Origin: a virus
Direction: 5' to 3' (one strand)
Virus record (IMG/VR): IMGVR_UViG_3300042516_002242
Location: 1-25,039 of that record
DNA length: 25,039 nucleotides
The translations under genes were made by a program, and so were the position numbers. Of the stretch, positions 2,095-23,338 are shown piece by piece (position 1 is the first letter of the stretch; every line of letters begins with the position of its first letter). The notes under the pieces were generated by a model that made no database searches, had not been told where the DNA came from, and was given only the letters and a program-made list of their open reading frames with translations.

Positions 2095-3111
2095 TCACGC
2101 GACCAGTTCCACGGCAGCGTCGAGCGCCGTCGCGACATCGTCGGCGACCGTGCCGTCCCATGCCGCGTAGGTGCGGACCGCGCTGTCCTTGGTGCGGACC
2201 GACTCCTCGGCGCGGGAGTGCTGGATCCAGTTGGTCATCGCGTTCGCGGCGACCCACAGGTTCGCGCCGAACTGCTGGGACTCCGCGTCGAACACGCGAG
2301 CCGCGTGTGCAAGCCCAGCGACCGCTCGCTCGCGGCGGCGCTCCTCCCAGCCGTTCTTCGGGTTGCTGGGGATCTCGCCGTCGAGGCGCTGCACCACATC
2401 GACCCACAGATCCTGCACCTGTTGCCGGGTGACCGGGGTCTTCGCCAGCGTCCGGGCGACGGTCGCGCCCTTGTCGATGGTGTTCTCCCAGTTCTTGATG
2501 CACTTCGCCAGTTCCTCGACGCGGGTGTTGAGGTTCAGCGTGTGGCGGAAGGACATCGCGTTGCGGCGAGCGCCGAGCGCGAGGTGGAAGGTGTTGCTGC
2601 ACACGACGCGGATCCCGGTCGGGATCGCCTTCAGCGCGAGCGAGCCGTCGTGACCGTTGGCGAGGAACAGGTACGGCACGGTCTCGTCGCCCTTGCAGCC
2701 GAACTCGACCGTCTTGCCGCGCAGCAGCATCCACACCCGGCGACCGCCCCGGATGGACCCGGCGGTCTCGACCTCGACCGTGCCGTCGGCGGCGGAGCGC
2801 AGACCGTAGGCGAGTTCGGCGAGTTGCGCGTTCTGAAACGGCTGGTAGTCGGGACCGACCACACCCAGCACGGTCTTGGTGTCCGAGCGCAGCAGCACCT
2901 TGGCGCTGTCGGTCGAGACCCGGTACTCGTCCTGCTCCCCGGCGTTGAAGACCCCGGTGATCGCGTCGGACTGCTCGACCTCCCACTCCAGCCCCGCGAT
3001 GCGGAGCGCCGAGAACGGATTCATCGCGCCCTGCACGACGGTCCCCATGCCGTGCCAAGCGCCGTCGTTCGCGAGCGCGAGACCGTCGATCTTCGTGAGT
3101 TCGTGTGCCAT
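2095..3111 (-). CDS. DUF932 (TIGR03299-type) phage/plasmid protein
   Basis: A 338-residue protein that matches, by recognition, the DUF932 family found on phages and plasmids, whose biochemical role is not established. Family-like features are the N-terminal MAHEL...GLALANDGAWHGMGT segment, VVGPDYQPFQN near residue 85, and the segment containing VVCSNTFHLALG near residue 175, followed by a long helical C-terminal half. The start at 3111 is chosen over the longer open frame because GGGAGACACTCAC precedes this ATG and the family normally begins there. The gene has its own promoter (3196-3224), a leader with two hairpins and a terminator (2050-2074), so it is likely a single-gene unit. It may act early in infection, on DNA or in defence interference, but this is inference. 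Confidence 0.85.
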   Translation of the reverse strand: MAHELTKIDGLALANDGAWHGMGTVVQGAMNPFSALRIAGLEWEVEQSDAITGVFNAGEQDEYRVSTDSAKVLLRSDTKTVLGVVGPDYQPFQNAQLAELAYGLRSAADGTVEVETAGSIRGGRRVWMLLRGKTVEFGCKGDETVPYLFLANGHDGSLALKAIPTGIRVVCSNTFHLALGARRNAMSFRHTLNLNTRVEELAKCIKNWENTIDKGATVARTLAKTPVTRQQVQDLWVDVVQRLDGEIPSNPKNGWEERRRERAVAGLAHAARVFDAESQQFGANLWVAANAMTNWIQHSRAEESVRTKDSAVRTYAAWDGTVADDVATALDAAVELVA

Positions 3112-3131
3112 GTGAGTGTCTCCCAAACTGT

Positions 3132-3178
3132 GAGCGCCGCAGCGCTCGGTTGCCCCTTGACTCGCGCCACGCGGCGCG
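3132..3178 (-). promoter_or_regulatory. Twin-hairpin 5' leader of the DUF932 gene
   Basis: Two perfect 6-bp inverted repeats lie between the promoter and the ribosome-binding site: GAGCGC (3132-3137)/GCGCTC (3142-3147) with a 4-base loop, and CGCGCC (3163-3168)/GGCGCG (3173-3178) with a 4-base loop. They could stabilise the 5' end of the mRNA or affect translation. No known riboswitch was recognised. Confidence 0.45.
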
Positions 3179-3195
3179 TGTGTTGGGTTGCAGGA

Positions 3196-3224
3196 ACTAT
3201 AGCACAAGTCTCACAGGGCTGCAA
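3196..3224 (-). promoter_or_regulatory. Sigma-70-like promoter of the DUF932 gene
   Basis: Read on the - strand: TTGCAG (3224-3219), a 17-base spacer, TATAGT (3201-3196). This is close to consensus (TTGACA, TATAAT) with ideal spacing and is the clearest promoter in the window. It stands out as an AT-rich patch in GC-rich sequence, about 85 bases before the ATG at 3111. It implies that the DUF932 gene is transcribed by unmodified host RNA polymerase. Confidence 0.75.
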
Positions 3225-8971: not shown

Positions 8972-10696
8972 ATGCTCAAACTCGATCTGCATTCGATGAT
9001 GCGGGAGGTCGAGGCGGCGGAGGACTTCCGCGACCAGCATCTGTCCGAGTGGCGAAGGCTGATCGAGCGATTCCACGGTCCCGCCTACCGTGCAATCGAC
9101 ACCCATGAGGACGATCCGGAGAACTTCGTGCATGAGTATGTGGCGCTTCTGCTGCCGCGCATCGTGCATGACGCTCCGAAGGTGCGCGTGAAGAGCGCTC
9201 GCCCTGTCTCGCAGTCGATGACCGCCGGGTTGCTTCAGGTCGGCGTGAACCGCTGGTGCAAGATGACCAAGGTTCGCAACACGCTTGAGCGCATCGCGAC
9301 GGATATGTTGCTCGCCTACGGTGTCGGTCTCGTCGTGAACGAGCCGCGCAAGGGCTACCGGGAGATCGATGGCGCGGAGCCGTTCCTCCCGCGCCTGTAC
9401 CGCGTCAGCCCGGATCGCTTCTTCATGGATCCGGCGGCGACGAACATGGAGGACACCCGGTACATGGGTCATTGCTGGGTGATCGACCGCGACGATCTGC
9501 TCGCGCAGGCGGAGCAGGAGGACGGCTGGGACACCGAGGTCATCAACCGCGTCGCCGACAACAGCGGCATCGACGAGGTGCGCGAGGGCTACTCGGGCAA
9601 GCGCGAGATCCCGGACCGGAAGGAGATGGTGGTCTACGAGGTGTTCGTGCCGGAGGTGCGCGACGATGACATCGAGGAGATCGATGCGACTCTCGGCGCA
9701 CAGGTGTTCAGCGGCACGATCTACACGATGATCAAGGGTCAGAGCGCGGACGGCAAGAAGTCCGATGCCGGGTTCGTTCGCAAGCCTCGCCCGTACTACG
9801 GACCGCGCACGGGTCCGTACACGGTGTTCGGCGTGTACACGGTCCCCGACGATCCGTATCCGCTGTCGCCGATCATGGCGCTGGTCCCGCAGATGGACGA
9901 TGTGAACCACCATCTGCGCTCGATGCGGTACAGCGCCAGCGCGTACAAGCGCATCATCGCGGTGGACAGCCGCAACGCGAAGTTGGCGCAGGACATCCGA
10001 GACAAGGACGATCTGTATGTGGTGCTTGCCGACGGCATTGACCCGACTCAAGTCGTTCCTATGGAGATCGGCGGCATCACTCCGCAGCAAGTTCAGTACT
10101 CGGCGATGGCGCAGGACAGGCTCGACCGTGTCTCCGGCATCCACGACGCGATGCGAGGCAACATCACGGGTCAGCCGACGGCTACCGAAGTCAGCGTTGC
10201 GGAAAGTGCGTCTGGGATGCGTATGGCGCACCTGAAGCGCCAGTTTCAGGAGTGCGTCAACGAGGTCATGCGAAATGTCGCGTGGTTCATGTTCCACGAC
10301 CGCAAGGTGGTGTTCCCCGTCGGCGAGGACGGCGTGGCGATCATGGGCGAGCCGGAGCCGATGTTCAGCGCCTCGGCGATGGTCGGCACATTCGATGACC
10401 TCGACATCGACATCGAGGCGATGAGCATGGAGCGCGTCAGCGACATGGTGTTGCAGAAGCGAGCGCTGGAGATGCTGCAACTCGTCGGCACGCTGTCGCA
10501 ACAGGTGGTCGCCGCTCCCCATGTGAAGTGGAACGATGTGATGTCGATGGTCGGCGATGCGATGAACATCCCGAACCTCGCCGATCTCATCGACCAGCAG
10601 CGTGTAATGCAGATGCAGCAGGGTGCAGCGCAAGCCCCACAGGGAGCGCAGGGCGAGAACGCGCTCCAGCAAATTCTTGCACGAAACAAGAGGTAA
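8972..10696 (+). CDS. Portal protein (putative)
   Basis: The portal is the dodecameric ring at one vertex through which DNA is packaged and ejected. The 574-aa length, the position after TerL and before the scaffold and capsid genes, and the sequence all fit. Family-like features are a helical N-terminal region that places residues at a membrane-free core, the YRVSPDRFFMDPAATNMEDT segment (about 149-168), and a long helical stem near 395-440 containing QPTATEVSVAESA and MRMAHLKRQFQECVNEV, typical of podovirus-type portals. The C-terminus is Gln- and Ala-rich. GGGAG upstream supports the ATG. The specific family was not verified by a search. Confidence 0.85.
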   Translation: MLKLDLHSMMREVEAAEDFRDQHLSEWRRLIERFHGPAYRAIDTHEDDPENFVHEYVALLLPRIVHDAPKVRVKSARPVSQSMTAGLLQVGVNRWCKMTKVRNTLERIATDMLLAYGVGLVVNEPRKGYREIDGAEPFLPRLYRVSPDRFFMDPAATNMEDTRYMGHCWVIDRDDLLAQAEQEDGWDTEVINRVADNSGIDEVREGYSGKREIPDRKEMVVYEVFVPEVRDDDIEEIDATLGAQVFSGTIYTMIKGQSADGKKSDAGFVRKPRPYYGPRTGPYTVFGVYTVPDDPYPLSPIMALVPQMDDVNHHLRSMRYSASAYKRIIAVDSRNAKLAQDIRDKDDLYVVLADGIDPTQVVPMEIGGITPQQVQYSAMAQDRLDRVSGIHDAMRGNITGQPTATEVSVAESASGMRMAHLKRQFQECVNEVMRNVAWFMFHDRKVVFPVGEDGVAIMGEPEPMFSASAMVGTFDDLDIDIEAMSMERVSDMVLQKRALEMLQLVGTLSQQVVAAPHVKWNDVMSMVGDAMNIPNLADLIDQQRVMQMQQGAAQAPQGAQGENALQQILARNKR

Positions 10697-13816: not shown

Positions 13817-13844
13817 CCGCTTGGGGGGGAAACCCCCCAAGCGG
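13817..13844 (+). terminator. 12-bp GNRA-loop hairpin before the adaptor-like gene
   Basis: CCGCTTGGGGGG (13817-13828), loop GAAA, CCCCCCAAGCGG (13833-13844): a perfect 12-bp stem with a GNRA tetraloop. It ends six bases before the ATG at 13851, leaving no free Shine-Dalgarno sequence. It could be a partial terminator, a stability element for the upstream mRNA, or a translation-control element. There is no U-tract. Confidence 0.65.
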
Positions 13845-13850
13845 ATTTCC

Positions 13851-14591
13851 ATGCCTACCTTCGCTGAAGCCAAGAACCACGCTGTCCTTGCCGTCGGCGG
13901 ATACCCGTCGCTCGCGCCGGGTCAGACGCGAGCCGCCCGACTGGCGGAGATCGTCAATCAGGCTGGGCAGTACCTGTTCTCTCGCCCGTGGCGATTCCGG
14001 GAGCGGACCAGCAAATACCTGTCTCTGGTCGCGAACCAGTCGTACATCGCCCTGCCCAGCGACGCGGAGGAGATCCTGTCGATCATCTCCCTTGAGTCGC
14101 TCGGCTACCTCATCGAGATGGTCACTCCGGACCACATGGAGCAACTCCGGCAACTGGGGCTGACCATGACCGGACCGGGCGTGACCCACGCCGTCTTCAC
14201 GCGCACCCCGCCAAGCGACGGCGATGCTCTTCCCCCCGTTCGTCTGGATGTCTATCCGACCCCGACCGGAGCGCTCGCCGATGCCATCGCGATTCGATAC
14301 CGGGCTGCATGGGTGGACATCGCGTCCGACGCTTCTGATTCGTGGCAGATCCCGATTCCGAAGTACTGCGATGCCCTGTTCATCGGCTACTGCCGCGCAT
14401 TCGCGCAGGCTTACGAAGACGAGGGGCTGACTGCCCGTCTTCAGGAAATCGATGCTGGTCCGCTGCTCGCCACGGCATCCACCAAGGATGGTCTGCTCCA
14501 GCGCGACCTCGGTCGTATGCGACCGTCGCGCAGCCCTGTCTCTGTCAACTGGACTCGCCCTGACTACGGGTATGTCACGAACCCGGATTGA
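13851..14591 (+). CDS. Head-tail adaptor-like protein, 246 aa
   Basis: The ATG at 13851 is the first plausible start; an upstream in-frame TTG lies inside the hairpin. The sequence contains WRFRERTSKYLSLVANQSY, LPSDAEEIL and a later beta-rich half, a pattern I associate with podovirus adaptor or tail-tubular-A-like proteins that join portal to tail. The region following the head genes is the expected place. Residues 55-75 have the W...L..V..Q..Y.LP layout. No membrane segment. The family name is tentative. Confidence 0.6.
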   Translation: MPTFAEAKNHAVLAVGGYPSLAPGQTRAARLAEIVNQAGQYLFSRPWRFRERTSKYLSLVANQSYIALPSDAEEILSIISLESLGYLIEMVTPDHMEQLRQLGLTMTGPGVTHAVFTRTPPSDGDALPPVRLDVYPTPTGALADAIAIRYRAAWVDIASDASDSWQIPIPKYCDALFIGYCRAFAQAYEDEGLTARLQEIDAGPLLATASTKDGLLQRDLGRMRPSRSPVSVNWTRPDYGYVTNPD

Positions 14592-17860: not shown

Positions 17861-18166
17861 ATGACTTCCTGCGAGCCTTGTTCATGTCCCTGCTGCAATG
17901 GACGGAAGGACTCTTCCGACAGCGCGGTATGGGCGTTGACGCTAAACATGATCGTGGTTTGCTGTCTCGCGGTGGCTCTCGCATTCGCAACTGGCTGCAC
18001 GCGCACGGTGCTGGTGAGCGAAAGCAGCCCGATCAGGATGGGTCCGGAGATCAAGGGTCGCGTGTACACGAAGACCGCTGACGGCTGGAAGTTGAGCGAC
18101 AACGAGGTCAAGATCCAAGAAGGCTGGTACTGCGTGCCGCCTTCCTTCGTCGAGGAGACACGGTAA
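17861..18166 (+). CDS. Lysis-cluster lipoprotein candidate with Cys-rich N-terminus, 101 aa
   Basis: The start at 17861 has GAGG close upstream. The first 12 residues, MTSCEPCSCPCC, are strikingly Cys-rich. A hydrophobic segment (about 27-44) ends in AFATGC, a lipobox-like sequence with Cys46. Translation from the inner ATG at 17948 would give a more conventional lipoprotein signal (MIVVCCLAVALAFATGC). The downstream part (TRTVLVSESSPIRMGPEIKG, ending EGWYCVPPSF) resembles a small phage protein often placed next to holins. It may be an outer-membrane spanin or an accessory lipoprotein. A GTG frame at 17857 overlaps it and is rejected. Confidence 0.65.
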   Translation: MTSCEPCSCPCCNGRKDSSDSAVWALTLNMIVVCCLAVALAFATGCTRTVLVSESSPIRMGPEIKGRVYTKTADGWKLSDNEVKIQEGWYCVPPSFVEETR

Positions 18167-19401
18167 TGGCAGTCAAGATCCAGTTCCGACGAGACACAGC
18201 AGCAAACTGGACGGCTGTCTCGTCCACCGTTCTCTCGGCTGGCGAGGTCGGCTACGAGTCCGACACGGGAAACATCAAGATCGGCGACGGGACCACGCAA
18301 TGGCAGAACCTTGCGTACTACCAGTTGCCGAATGTCTCCGTGAACCCGGCGACCAGCAGCGACCTGAATGCGACCAACTACCGGGTCATGGGTCGGTACA
18401 GGCTCGACACCGTCACCAGCGGCACGACGCTGACCAATGGTCCGTCGGATCTGGATGCAGCCGATGCTGACTCGGTCTGCACGCTGCTCGTCACGACGCA
18501 CGCCTACGACAGCCTCACGACCCATGTCCAGCAGACGCTGACCCAGTTCAGCGCCAGCGCGACCAGCCTCAAGCAATGGGTGCGCCTATACAACGGAACG
18601 AACTGGACGGCATGGACCAGCACGGCGCACCTGTCGGACGGCGAAGTTACGACGGCGAAGATCGCTGACGCAAATGTCACAACAGCGAAAATCGCTGACA
18701 CGAATGTCACGACCGCGAAGATCGCTGATGATGCTGTGACCGCAGACAAACTTGCCGATGATGCAAGCACGGACGGCAATCGAGCGGTCACCACAAATCA
18801 CATTCGTAATTCGGCTGTCACAACTGCGAAGATTGCTGACTCCAATGTGACTACCGCAAAGATTGCTGATAGCAATGTCACTTTCGCAAAGTTGCCAAAC
18901 AGCGCCGCTGCTGGTCTTTCTGTGATTGGTCGAAGTGCAAATTCCGCTGGAGTCTTCGCGGAAATTGCTGCCGGAACGGACGGTCAGGTTCTTCGGCGTA
19001 GCGGAACCGCAGTTGGATTTGGGACGATTGCTACTGCTGGAATTGCAGATAGCGCAGTCACTACGGCAAAGATTCTCGATGCAAATGTCACTGTTGCGAA
19101 AGTCGCAGCAGACATCATGCAGCGAACCACCAATCAGATTGGCGTTTTCGTGATTGCAAGATCACAAGGAAATTCGGATACGGTGACGCAAACTGTGTCT
19201 GGTGCGTTTATCAATACTGTGTCTGGTGCGTCTAGAGCGCTTCGTCCTGCCGCCGGAACTTGGACCGTAATGTTTGTTGGTCCGACATCATCACAACTTG
19301 TCGAACAAGGACTTATTGTCGGAATGACGAGTAGTTCTACTGATCTGCGTCAAAACAACGATAGCGCGTCGTTGGTTGTCATCGCTATCAGAACTGCCTG
19401 A
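18166..19401 (+). CDS. Tail fibre with Mtd-like N-terminus and VTTAKIAD repeats
   Basis: A 411-aa fibre. Residues 1-50 (FRRDTAANWTAV, then GEVGYESDTGNIKIGDGT) are the short N-terminal module seen in phage fibres and in the Bordetella phage tropism determinant. Repeats of about ten residues, VTTAKIADxN, run from about residue 161 (18646-18765), with more copies at 18817-18906 and 19057-19116. Such repeats form trimeric shafts in aquatic phage fibres. The last 90 residues form a separate tip-like domain. Codons change from GC-ending to AT-ending at about 18,780. GAGGAG precedes the ATG, which overlaps the previous stop (TAATG). Confidence 0.82.
   Translation: MAVKIQFRRDTAANWTAVSSTVLSAGEVGYESDTGNIKIGDGTTQWQNLAYYQLPNVSVNPATSSDLNATNYRVMGRYRLDTVTSGTTLTNGPSDLDAADADSVCTLLVTTHAYDSLTTHVQQTLTQFSASATSLKQWVRLYNGTNWTAWTSTAHLSDGEVTTAKIADANVTTAKIADTNVTTAKIADDAVTADKLADDASTDGNRAVTTNHIRNSAVTTAKIADSNVTTAKIADSNVTFAKLPNSAAAGLSVIGRSANSAGVFAEIAAGTDGQVLRRSGTAVGFGTIATAGIADSAVTTAKILDANVTVAKVAADIMQRTTNQIGVFVIARSQGNSDTVTQTVSGAFINTVSGASRALRPAAGTWTVMFVGPTSSQLVEQGLIVGMTSSSTDLRQNNDSASLVVIAIRTA
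18646..18906 (+). repeat. 10-residue fibre shaft repeats, 30-base period
   Basis: Units at 18646, 18676, 18706 and 18736, then 18817, 18847 and 18877, each 30 bases, encoding variants of VTTAKIADAN. Further diverged units start at 19057 and 19087. The first group uses mostly ATC/GAC codons and the second ATT/GAT, so they are repeats at the protein level rather than fresh DNA duplications. Confidence 0.85.
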
Positions 19402-21533
19402 TGCCATACACCCAAGCCATCATCCCGCTTCGTGGCTGGATCACGGACACCGTCTACAGCGGCGTTCCGGAGGGGTACACGCATGACATCCTGAATGTCA
19501 TCCCCAACGATCCGTTCCGCCGCAGGGTGAGGCTTGCCACTCGTCCGGGATTCAACCGGATGTACAAGTTCGCGTCCGGATCAGTTCAATGCTGCGTTCG
19601 GACGAACGCATTCAGCGGGACTCCGCCGACGATCAAGGACCGGGTATTGATCGTCAATGCAGGCAAGATCTACTACATGGATCCGGGCGGTGACCCGGTT
19701 CAGGTGCTTGGTCCTTCGTCATCCACCGCAGCAGCACTCATTACGACCGGGCGAGTCGAGGCTGTCCAGCGAGGTCAGTACTGTTACTTCGTGGATGGCA
19801 CGCACTACAAGAAGGTGGATCTGTTCGTCAATCCTCCGACATGGGCGAATTGGGAACACTCCTCCCACGGTCCCGAAGACAATGTCCGCAACACCGTCGG
19901 CGGAGTCACATACACCGCGACGCTGATTGCCTTGTTTGGAACCCGTCTTGTTCTTGCTGGAGTTCGCCAGAAAGAGAACATCTGGTGGATGTCGAACATC
20001 GAGGATCCGGATCATTGGTCGATCACATCCGGAAACGCCGCCGATCCTATTGCCGGAAACGACGGAACATGGGGTGTTCCGGGCGATGAGATCGTCGCCC
20101 TGATTCCGTTCGGTCAGGGTTCGCTGATCTATGCCGGAAAGAAGTCGATGTCAATGCTGACTGCCGACCCTGTCTTCGGCACGGCAACCATCCAGCAGAT
20201 GAGCCGAACCGTCGGCATTGTCGGTCCGCGTGCATGGTGCAACGGTCCAGAGAAGACGGTGTATGTCCTCGCGCAGGACGGTCTGTACAGGCTGTCGCCG
20301 AACGACTTTAACATCGACCGTGGTCAACTGGTGTCGCTGAACAAACTCGACTCGTTCTTCAACGCTGTCAAGTGGGAGGACATCAACGCGACGCTGTCAT
20401 ACGATGTCGAGCGGAGAGGTCTGTGGATCTTCCTGACCCGCATCGACCAGCCGACGAGCAGCACGCACCTGTTCTACTCCGACCAGACGGACGGGTTCTA
20501 CCCGTTCAAGATGTATGACCCGAACTTCGACGGCGCGTATTCGACTTGCCAGATGCTGACTACCGATGGTCGCAATCAGGTCGCGCTGTTCGGCTCGCTT
20601 GACGGACAACTCGGAATCTTCGACCAGAAGGTCATCGCGGGAATCGACGGTTATGTCGCCGCAGGATATGACTCGACTCGCAATCCGACCATCGGTGAAT
20701 CCGAGGATCAGCGCATCATTGCCCGCGTCACCATCGGTCCGATGGTGTCAAGCCAGCCGGGACTGGCATTCTGCTCCGAGGTTCAGATCGAACTCGGATC
20801 CGACACCTACCTTCCTGACTTGGATGTGAAGGGTCTTGCCCCGAATCCATACGCCACGATGCTGTCTGCCGAGACCGCGCAGGACGCAATTGCCGAGAGC
20901 ATCAATTCGGTGGCTGTGTCGGATGTGCTTGGGATCACGGCTGACGGTGGATCCTCCGGGACATCATCGTTCACGACCACCTATGACGGTGGTGATGCGA
21001 ATGACTCCGTCACCTCCTATCTCGACGGTCAGTACTCGGATCCGACACCCGGCACATACACGACGCAGGACACCTTCGTCGCTCCGCTTGATCGGGTCTA
21101 CGAGAACGACATCAGCAGATACGAACTTGTGCGAGCGACCATCGGCGGATCATCGAGATGGTGCATTAGGTTTCAGGACGATGGCGTGTATCCGGTCACG
21201 AATCGAATCGTTTTCGTCCAGCAGCAGTCGAACGGTGAGTATGCCGAGGATCCGAGCGTCGGCGAGTACAGGTATGTAGTGACCGACGAGACCGGGGCAA
21301 TCGTGTCCACGCTGACCACGGTCACCGCAGCCGTTTCAGCAGCCGTGTCGGAAGGCGCGACCACTACCAGCCTCGGAAACTTGACCGAAGGGGCAAACAA
21401 CCGGATGCGCTGCCGAATCCGTGCAAACGCGATGTTCCTCCGTCTGGAATCGTCTGGATATCCGTTTGCCATCGAGCGCATTGCCGCAAACCTCCAGCCT
21501 GTCGGACCAAGGAGGGCTGTCATCGATGTCTGA
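19401..21533 (+). CDS. Tail nozzle / DNA-stabilisation protein (P22 gp10 or tail-tubular-B-like)
   Basis: A 710-aa protein that starts on the last base of the preceding stop (TGATG). It resembles the beta-propeller nozzle proteins of short-tailed phages: the NIWWMSNIEDPDHWSITSGN segment (about 193-212) matches the typical W-S-x-x-x-D-P-x-x-W pattern, and the C-terminal residues (FLRLESSGYPFAIERIAANL, then GPRR) match the usual final strands. It would close the tail tube and hold packaged DNA. A ribosome-binding site for the next gene (AAGGAGG) lies in its last codons. Confidence 0.78.
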   Translation: MPYTQAIIPLRGWITDTVYSGVPEGYTHDILNVIPNDPFRRRVRLATRPGFNRMYKFASGSVQCCVRTNAFSGTPPTIKDRVLIVNAGKIYYMDPGGDPVQVLGPSSSTAAALITTGRVEAVQRGQYCYFVDGTHYKKVDLFVNPPTWANWEHSSHGPEDNVRNTVGGVTYTATLIALFGTRLVLAGVRQKENIWWMSNIEDPDHWSITSGNAADPIAGNDGTWGVPGDEIVALIPFGQGSLIYAGKKSMSMLTADPVFGTATIQQMSRTVGIVGPRAWCNGPEKTVYVLAQDGLYRLSPNDFNIDRGQLVSLNKLDSFFNAVKWEDINATLSYDVERRGLWIFLTRIDQPTSSTHLFYSDQTDGFYPFKMYDPNFDGAYSTCQMLTTDGRNQVALFGSLDGQLGIFDQKVIAGIDGYVAAGYDSTRNPTIGESEDQRIIARVTIGPMVSSQPGLAFCSEVQIELGSDTYLPDLDVKGLAPNPYATMLSAETAQDAIAESINSVAVSDVLGITADGGSSGTSSFTTTYDGGDANDSVTSYLDGQYSDPTPGTYTTQDTFVAPLDRVYENDISRYELVRATIGGSSRWCIRFQDDGVYPVTNRIVFVQQQSNGEYAEDPSVGEYRYVVTDETGAIVSTLTTVTAAVSAAVSEGATTTSLGNLTEGANNRMRCRIRANAMFLRLESSGYPFAIERIAANLQPVGPRRAVIDV

Positions 21534-22347
21534 CAACGGCATGAGCAAGTCAGATCTCGACAAGGTGCAGCGCTTTGAGCAGGCGCTGCTGTCGCTTCCA
21601 CAGGTGGATATGCAGACGGCGAGCCTCATCCACGGCAAGATGTACGCCCGGACGATCTTCATCCCAGCCGGGACCGCCGTGACCGGGACGCTCACCAAGT
21701 TGGACAACATCTGTGTGGTCAGCGGGGACATCACCGTCACCACCGACAACGGTATGCAGCGTCTTGTGGGATTCCATGTCCTTCCGGCGAGCAAGGGGTA
21801 CAAGCGTGTCGGGTACGCGCACGCGGACACCTACTGGACCACGCTCATTCAGACGGACGCAGCCACGGTCGAACAGGCGGAAGACGCTATGACCGACGAG
21901 GCTGCAAATCTCCAGACACGGCGCACGGGCATCGAGTACGACTGGAACAGCAAGGCTCGGTCTGATTACGGAGACTTTATCCGCGAATACGGGTTGCCGC
22001 TGGAGTTCATTGATGCATGGATGCGACGCACCGATGACCTGATCGAGACAGAGGCTTGCTATCGCAACATGGCGATGTCTCCGTCGCCGATCCACGGCAT
22101 TGGGGTGTTCGCGAATCGAGACATCAAGAAGGGCGAGCGAATTGCCCCGGCTCGCCGGGACGGTCACAGGTGCGTCGCTGGGAGGTTCACGAACCATTCC
22201 CATGAGCCGAACGCGCAGTTTGTCGCAACGGGAATCGGCGATCATGTGGACATGGTCGCCATCAAGCAGATCAAGGGCGGTCGCGAGATCACGGTCGATT
22301 ACCGGGTCAGCGGTCTGGTAGCACACGCCATCGATACGGAGACCTGA
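21526..22347 (+). CDS. Cupin-SET domain fusion protein, 273 aa
   Basis: The start at 21526 has AAGGAGG upstream and overlaps the nozzle stop by eight bases. The N-terminal half (about 37-110) is a cupin-like barrel (YARTIFIPAGTAVTG, VVSGDITVTTDNG, GYKRVGYAHADTYWTT), a module recurrent in phage virion regions. The C-terminal part (about 186-262) has SET-domain marks: GIGVF (191-195), the AxxR/GR-FTNHS-HEPNA segment (N223-H224-S225) and EITVDY (D258-Y259). SET domains usually methylate protein lysines using S-adenosylmethionine. Whether this copy is active, and on what target, is unknown. It may be a virion-associated or late modifying enzyme. Confidence 0.8.
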   Translation: MSDNGMSKSDLDKVQRFEQALLSLPQVDMQTASLIHGKMYARTIFIPAGTAVTGTLTKLDNICVVSGDITVTTDNGMQRLVGFHVLPASKGYKRVGYAHADTYWTTLIQTDAATVEQAEDAMTDEAANLQTRRTGIEYDWNSKARSDYGDFIREYGLPLEFIDAWMRRTDDLIETEACYRNMAMSPSPIHGIGVFANRDIKKGERIAPARRDGHRCVAGRFTNHSHEPNAQFVATGIGDHVDMVAIKQIKGGREITVDYRVSGLVAHAIDTET

Positions 22348-22348
22348 T

Positions 22349-23338
22349 ATGTCATTCATCGGAGCAGGAGCAGCAATCGGAATCGGCGCGTCGGCAGCGG
22401 CGGCAATCGGCACGGGTCTTGCCGTCGGCGGCGTTGCGATGGGTGTCGGATCCATTGCATCCGGCATCCTCGCCAAGCAGGCTGCTGACGCGAAGCAGCG
22501 TGCCTATCGAACCATGACCGAATGGGCTGGCGGTCAGTATCAGGATCTCGGCAAGTACCAGCAGGAGCAGCAGGACAAGATCCTGAAGTCGTTCCTTGAG
22601 AACCGCACCACAAATCTGGCGCAGTACAAGGGCGGCTACGAGACCCTAATCAGCGACTTCGATACCCGGTTCAAGGAACTGGAGACCGCCTACTCGCAGG
22701 CTTCCGCAGGAATTACCTCCCAGTTCCGCGAGGGCATGGGTCGCGTCCGGGAGACCGCTGCCGTCGGTCGGACCAACACGCTGGCTGCAATCGATCAGGC
22801 GACCACGCAGAGCCTTGCTCGTATGCAGCAGGCACAGGCGTTTACGGGTCTCGGAGGAACGACCTTCGGGCAGTCGGCGCTCGCCGCCGAGCAGCGGCAG
22901 GGTGCGCTCCAGAAGGGCGTTGTCGAGGAGCAGTATGCAAGCCAGTTGGCTGGCATCGAGCAGGCGTTGACGCAGGGCGTTTCGTCGCTTGAGCAGCAGA
23001 GACTGGCTAACCTGACGCAGATGCAGCAGGCTCGCGTCGGCGGCGGCTTGTCGATGCGCCAGCAGTTGCTCGGTCAGACCTTCGCGCAGCGCGAGGATGT
23101 CGCTCGCCAGAGGGCTGCGCTCGGCGCTGACTTCCTCAACGCGCAGATCAACCTTGAGCGCGAGCGCGTCGCCCGAGTCATGGGCGGCAAGGAAGCGCAG
23201 GCACAGTACGCGGGAAGCGGCTATCAGGCTGCTGCCGCAATCGTCGGCGGAGCGACCAGCGGTATCGCGTCCGGGATCATGGGTATGTACCAGCCGTACC
23301 TGTCCGGAATGGGCATGGCTGCTGGAATGCGAGCATAA
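22349..23338 (+). CDS. Putative internal virion / DNA-ejection protein 1, 329 aa
   Basis: GGAG precedes the ATG. Residues 1-45 are hydrophobic and Gly/Ala-rich with glycine-zipper spacing (GAGAAIGIGASAAAAIGTG), a feature of ejection proteins that enter membranes. A long helical, Gln-rich middle (about 55-285) follows, then a second Gly/Ala/Met-rich hydrophobic end (YQAAAAIVGGATSGIASGI). P22 gp7/gp20-type and T7-type internal proteins have similar composition. Position after the nozzle gene fits. No lysozyme motif seen. Confidence 0.6.
   Translation: MSFIGAGAAIGIGASAAAAIGTGLAVGGVAMGVGSIASGILAKQAADAKQRAYRTMTEWAGGQYQDLGKYQQEQQDKILKSFLENRTTNLAQYKGGYETLISDFDTRFKELETAYSQASAGITSQFREGMGRVRETAAVGRTNTLAAIDQATTQSLARMQQAQAFTGLGGTTFGQSALAAEQRQGALQKGVVEEQYASQLAGIEQALTQGVSSLEQQRLANLTQMQQARVGGGLSMRQQLLGQTFAQREDVARQRAALGADFLNAQINLERERVARVMGGKEAQAQYAGSGYQAAAAIVGGATSGIASGIMGMYQPYLSGMGMAAGMRA

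What the first reader, a model, noticed from the sequence alone, without database searches (positions are those of the whole stretch)
21526..22347. Cupin-SET fusion encoded among the virion genes
SET domains are best known as eukaryotic or bacterial protein-lysine methyltransferases. Here the SET marks (GIGVF, NHS, EITVDY) sit after a cupin-like barrel in one late gene, between the nozzle and internal virion genes. I recall related cupin or SET proteins in other phage genomes, so the combination may not be new, but its role is not established to my knowledge. The enzyme could modify capsid, tail or host proteins late in infection, or be carried in the particle.
Basis: partly seen in the sequence, partly recalled or inferred. 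Interest (0 to 1): 0.65.

Follow-up and report, generated by a model that had tools for sequence, protein, structure and literature searches.

The report
Phage cupin–SET lysine methyltransferase-like protein
A gene in the particle-building part of this bacterial virus joins a cupin barrel, related to known phage tail-gene proteins, to an enzyme domain of the kind that puts methyl groups on lysines; the same fusion occurs in hundreds of environmental viruses, so it is real and widespread, but nobody has tested what it modifies.

Summary
Confirmed. Window 21526-22347 (+) encodes a 273-aa protein. Residues 28-110 form a cupin barrel and 176-260 a SET domain (Pfam E 6.8e-12; model matches the MLL1 SET domain, Z 13.4, rmsd 1.6). 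GxG, NH and the catalytic Tyr are kept across relatives, and dN/dS in the SET part is about 0.04-0.3. The gene has its own AGGAGG and sits between a nozzle-like gene and a DNA-ejection-family gene.

(2) The fusion recurs in cultured phages (PH1, P26218) and at least 468 viral-contig stretches, as PHROG 34170, function unknown. (3) The SET-I insert is missing: 9 residues against 43 in MLL1, which should leave the lysine channel open unless something else closes it. (4) SET was gained or lost repeatedly. (5) BPP-1-type cupins without SET instead have a GNAT acetyltransferase gene directly upstream.

Most likely it is a late lysine methyltransferase, docked by its cupin on the connector/ejection machinery. 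Activity, substrate and presence in the virion are untested.

The parts
21526..22347 (+). cupin-SET gene, 273 aa
21510..21515 (+). Shine-Dalgarno-like AGGAGG; the start codon overlaps the end of the upstream ORF (stop at 21533)
   Evidence: sequence
21607..21855 (+). cupin barrel, residues 28-110
   Evidence: AF2 pLDDT 95.6/pTM 0.87; cupin hits up to Z 10.4; homologous to phrog_12032 and BPP-1 Bbp23
21943..22026 (+). helical hairpin, residues 140-167, found only with the SET module; D147, Y/F148, G156 conserved
   Evidence: also present in the split SET ORF of Paraburkholderia ferrariae
22051..22305 (+). SET domain, residues 176-260, without SET-I
22096..22104 (+). GxG motif (G191, G193), SAM-binding loop
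   Evidence: invariant in A1; G193 66/66, G191 65/66
22192..22197 (+). N223-H224, SAM-binding motif
   Evidence: 66/66
22285..22302 (+). EITVDY with the predicted catalytic Y259
   Evidence: E254 and Y259 66/66
19401..21533 (+). upstream 710-aa nozzle/tail-appendage-like gene
   Evidence: phrog_8094 E 1.8e-4; nozzle cluster
22349..23338 (+). downstream gene of the DNA-ejection cluster
   Evidence: no direct family match

Best explanation
It is a late phage protein in which a non-metal cupin barrel (the 'PHA00672/short tail fiber' family) carries a compact SET lysine methyltransferase. The cupin most likely dimerises the protein and docks it at the head-tail connector/ejection apparatus. The SET domain would bind SAM through GxG and NH and methylate lysines of a neighbouring virion protein (an ejection protein or the nozzle) during assembly, with Y259 as the catalytic residue. 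The helical hairpin 140-167 or a second protomer would stand in for the missing SET-I. Shown here: both folds, conserved cofactor and catalytic residues, purifying selection, late-gene position. Inferred: activity, dimerisation, docking, substrate and timing.
For: SET fold and motifs. dN/dS in the SET part 0.04-0.20 wherever dS is usable, 0.30 in one near-identical pair. The GxG-to-NHS distance is 32 residues in 75 of 76 proteins, so the short form is fixed, not decayed. The cupin is homologous to tail-annotated PHROG families. The next gene falls in the ejection cluster in 85 of 104 loci. In Paraburkholderia ferrariae the two modules are separate, overlapping ORFs, which supports a joint function.
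Against: SET-I, which in known enzymes helps form the lysine channel (background knowledge), is missing, so activity on lysine is not assured. No proteomics was found placing the protein or its relatives in virions. pTM 0.52 leaves the domain arrangement undefined. Many relatives lack SET altogether and none of those tested has one elsewhere, so the modification cannot be essential to the cupin's role. In P. ferrariae the pair lies beside a DnaB-like and an integrase gene, not beside virion genes. The 'tail fiber' names are annotations, not tests.
Confidence: 0.42

Rival explanations
1. It is an active lysine methyltransferase, but its target is a host protein: it is made late, or is injected with the ejection proteins, and alters a host factor.
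For: Same catalytic features. Gene next to the ejection cluster. One relative lies outside the virion genes.
Against: Late position and tail-type cupin point to assembly; nothing identifies a host target.
Confidence: 0.25
2. The SET domain binds SAM or a peptide but no longer catalyses; it is a structural or regulatory add-on to a tail cupin.
For: SET-I missing (9 against 43 residues); no post-SET cysteines in 83 of 83; domain dispensable in relatives.
Against: E254, Y259, N223 and H224 are unchanged in 66 of 66 and dN/dS is low. Part of that invariance is built in, because the scan patterns contained these motifs; the 11-sequence set (5 of them found by tblastn on named phages) agrees.
Confidence: 0.2
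3. The protein is a receptor-binding short tail fibre, as some records call the cupin family, and the SET part is incidental.
For: phrog_12032 and phrog_24280 names; record names.
Against: About 120-aa globular cupin with no fibre repeats; conserved over very different hosts; a separate Mtd-type fibre gene is in the window; the name has no experimental basis in the papers read.
Confidence: 0.1

Closest known systems
PHROG 34170 (Pseudoalteromonas phage PH1 gp49, Rhodoferax phage P26218 gp30, and others)
   Same: Same cupin-SET architecture over the whole length (E 2.5e-43); in PH1 and P26218 the next gene is annotated as DNA ejection
   Different: 23-33% identity to the named phages; uncharacterised, no function assigned
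BPP-1 Bbp23 / PHA00672 'short tail fiber' family (phrog_12032)
   Same: Cupin domain, 46% identity over residues 6-137
   Different: No SET; lies between the terminase and portal genes, next to a GNAT gene
SET-domain lysine methyltransferases (MLL1/KMT2A; viral vSET)
   Same: SET fold, GxG, NHSxxPN, ExTxDY; Z 13.4 to MLL1, 12.2 to vSET
   Different: SET-I missing, no post-SET cysteines, fused to a phage cupin; substrate unknown
Stand-alone phage mini-SET proteins (Pelagibacter phage Kolga gp27, cyanophage P-SSM7)
   Same: Similarly short stretch between GxG and NHS, and a Tyr after the ELxxK motif
   Different: About 100 aa, no cupin, not beside virion genes in the stretches viewed

Membership tests
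SET-domain protein lysine methyltransferases | SET fold | tested here: met
   Pfam E 6.8e-12; Z 13.4, rmsd 1.6 over 80 residues to 7u5v
SET-domain protein lysine methyltransferases | GxG and NH(S)xxPN SAM-binding motifs | tested here: met
   S225 is Ala in 15 of 66
SET-domain protein lysine methyltransferases | catalytic Tyr in the ExxxDY motif | tested here: met
   Y259 66/66
SET-domain protein lysine methyltransferases | SET-I insert forming part of the lysine channel (common to characterised enzymes, variable in length) | tested here: not met
   9 against 43 residues in MLL1; fixed 32-residue GxG-to-NHS spacing
SET-domain protein lysine methyltransferases | methyl transfer to lysine | not testable with these tools
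   needs biochemistry; it is therefore called methyltransferase-like here
Cupin superfamily | double-stranded beta-helix fold | tested here: met
   pLDDT 95.6; list of cupins, best Z 10.4
Cupin superfamily | metal-binding His/Glu motifs (enzymatic cupins only) | tested here: not met
   the positions read T55, T57, N61 in the window protein
phrog_12032 / PHA00672 | sequence homology of the cupin | tested here: met
   E 9.5e-26; 46% identity to Bbp23
phrog_12032 / PHA00672 | is a virion tail component | not tested
   no proteomics found in the papers searched and read
PHROG 34170 | full-length cupin-SET match | tested here: met
   E 2.5e-43, residues 13-260

The most novel reading that the evidence does not exclude
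The cupin is an exchangeable adaptor that brings a lysine-modifying enzyme to one phage target, either a fused SET methyltransferase or an adjacent GNAT acetyltransferase, giving phages a dedicated post-translational modification system at the connector/ejection machinery, with a SET domain that works without SET-I.
Probability: 0.13. Interest if true: 0.82.

Novelty: new variant of a known kind. Interest (0 to 1): 0.52.

Why it matters
If active, it would be a phage protein-lysine methyltransferase tied to particle assembly or DNA ejection, and a SET enzyme without its usual substrate-channel insert. Cultured phages (PH1, P26218) carry it, so it can be tested. It would also give a function to a family found in hundreds of viral contigs that is now labelled unknown, and would question the 'short tail fiber' label on its cupin relatives.

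Tried and rejected
Artefactual fusion: rejected, since the fusion recurs in independent records. Decay of the SET part: rejected by dN/dS and fixed spacing. SET supplied by another gene in SET-less relatives: one of 50 genomes matched, and that match (G093, locus L250) lies about 220 bases past the cupin in one open frame, so it is itself a fusion. A general GNAT link: only in the terminase-portal group; 2 of 50 cupin-SET records have an above-cut-off GNAT. Metal-dependent cupin enzyme: ligands absent in the window protein. PDB relatives of the cupin by sequence: none significant. Literature on phage SET proteins, PHA00672 and Bbp23: nothing on function. A near-DNA relative of the window among phage records: none. 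The tree cannot tell gain from loss of SET, and its many rows on 132 columns leave many forks open.

Full report
Observation. The ORF at 21526-22347 (+) is real and complete: 273 aa, AGGAGG 10 bases before the ATG, start overlapping the end of the upstream ORF, next start 2 bases after its stop. No promoter-like or terminator-like site beyond chance was found around it, which fits one late transcript. The window is a 25-kb virus record of unknown completeness with no DNA-level match among 50,697 phage records.

Domains. Pfam finds SET at E 6.8e-12. The AlphaFold2 model made from 68 relatives has mean pLDDT 86 and pTM 0.52, so the domains are reliable but their mutual arrangement is not. The SET half aligns best to MLL1 (Z 13.4, rmsd 1.6, 80 residues) and to vSET (Z 12.2). 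The cupin half modelled alone has pLDDT 95.6 and pTM 0.87, and the list it returns is made of cupins, best Z 10.4. The residues of the usual cupin metal site read T, T and N in the window protein, so a metal enzyme is unlikely.

Catalytic residues. In 11 full-length proteins, 5 of them from named phages found by tblastn, G191, G193, N223, H224, E254, D258 and Y259 are invariant. In the larger set of 66, G193, N223, H224, E254 and Y259 are unchanged; part of this is built in, because the contig scan used motifs that include some of these positions. dN/dS against close relatives is 0.04-0.20 in the SET part where dS is usable, with one pair at 0.30 where dS is only 0.03.

What is missing. Between the GE(x)I strand and the NHS segment the family has 9 residues where MLL1 has 43. 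The GxG-to-NHS spacing is 32 in 75 of 76 proteins, and none of 83 has three cysteines after the catalytic Tyr. From general knowledge of SET enzymes, SET-I helps build the lysine channel and supplies some of its aromatic residues. Its loss means that activity cannot be taken for granted. A conserved helical hairpin (residues 140-167) always comes with the SET module and is absent from SET-less cupins; it could take that place, but this is a guess. Two stand-alone mini-SET proteins of other phages (Kolga, P-SSM7) are similarly short in this stretch.

Relatives. The whole protein matches PHROG 34170 (E 2.5e-43); the cupin alone matches phrog_12032 'short tail fiber protein' and BPP-1 Bbp23 at 46% identity. 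Full-length relatives with names are PH1, P26218, zth2-2 and phage genomes from Manatee Spring. A motif scan found 468 related stretches in viral contigs. Seven loci came from bacterial genome assemblies, among them Paraburkholderia ferrariae NBRC 106233, where cupin and SET are two ORFs overlapping by an ATGA, beside a DnaB-like helicase gene and an integrase gene. The P26218 genome paper does not mention SET or methyltransferase.

Neighbourhood. In 85 of 104 loci the next gene falls in one cluster seeded with annotated DNA-ejection proteins, and nozzle-like genes lie one to three genes upstream in most; the window fits this. These clusters were grown by iterated profiles on compositionally biased proteins, so single members may be wrong, but the constant +1 position argues against drift. 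A second setting, terminase - cupin - portal, is seen in BPP-1, ctQRb9 and L083.

Evolution. A cupin tree (113 rows, 132 columns) needs 8 changes between SET and no SET; well supported branches force at least 4. The window's clade lies among SET-less cupins near the BPP-1 type. Two near-identical phages, L004 and L006, are about 98% identical on both sides but only 68-88% over the cupin half, so the cupin has been exchanged by recombination with a break near the domain boundary. Of 50 cupin genomes listed as SET-less, none has a separate SET gene; the one match is itself a fusion.

GNAT. In 72 of 82 BPP-1-type loci a GNAT acetyltransferase gene lies directly upstream of the cupin, against 1 of 104 with SET (searches agree). 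Because the BPP-1-type loci share one gene order, this may be a single inherited linkage rather than repeated pairing. It is the basis of the novel case only.

Judgement. A phage methyltransferase-like protein with intact cofactor and catalytic motifs is well supported; lysine methylation of a virion protein is the best guess, not a result. Methyl transfer, substrate and presence in the particle all need experiments.

Noticed in passing
window 18166-19401: Tail-fibre-like gene whose N-terminus matches the Major tropism determinant domain (PF18454, E 1.2e-15), with repeated TTAKIAD-type units. A diversity-generating retroelement was not looked for.
   Followed up: no
window 13821-14591 and 8972-10696: SU10-type adaptor (PF24175, E 3.6e-12) and sub-threshold SU10/P22-type portal matches, pointing to a podovirus-like virion.
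   Followed up: partly
L270 5665-7112 (Paraburkholderia ferrariae): Cupin and SET as separate overlapping ORFs beside a DnaB-like gene and an integrase gene, not beside virion genes.
   Followed up: partly
L004 and L006, around 9981-10400: Cupin half strongly diverged between otherwise about 98% identical phages: recombination near the domain boundary.
   Followed up: yes
L014 4501-5420 and loci L106-L185: GNAT acetyltransferase gene directly upstream of SET-less BPP-1-type cupins in 72 of 82 loci.
   Followed up: partly
window 2095-3207 (-): Long minus-strand ORF of 370 aa opposite to the late genes; it was not searched against any library.
   Followed up: no
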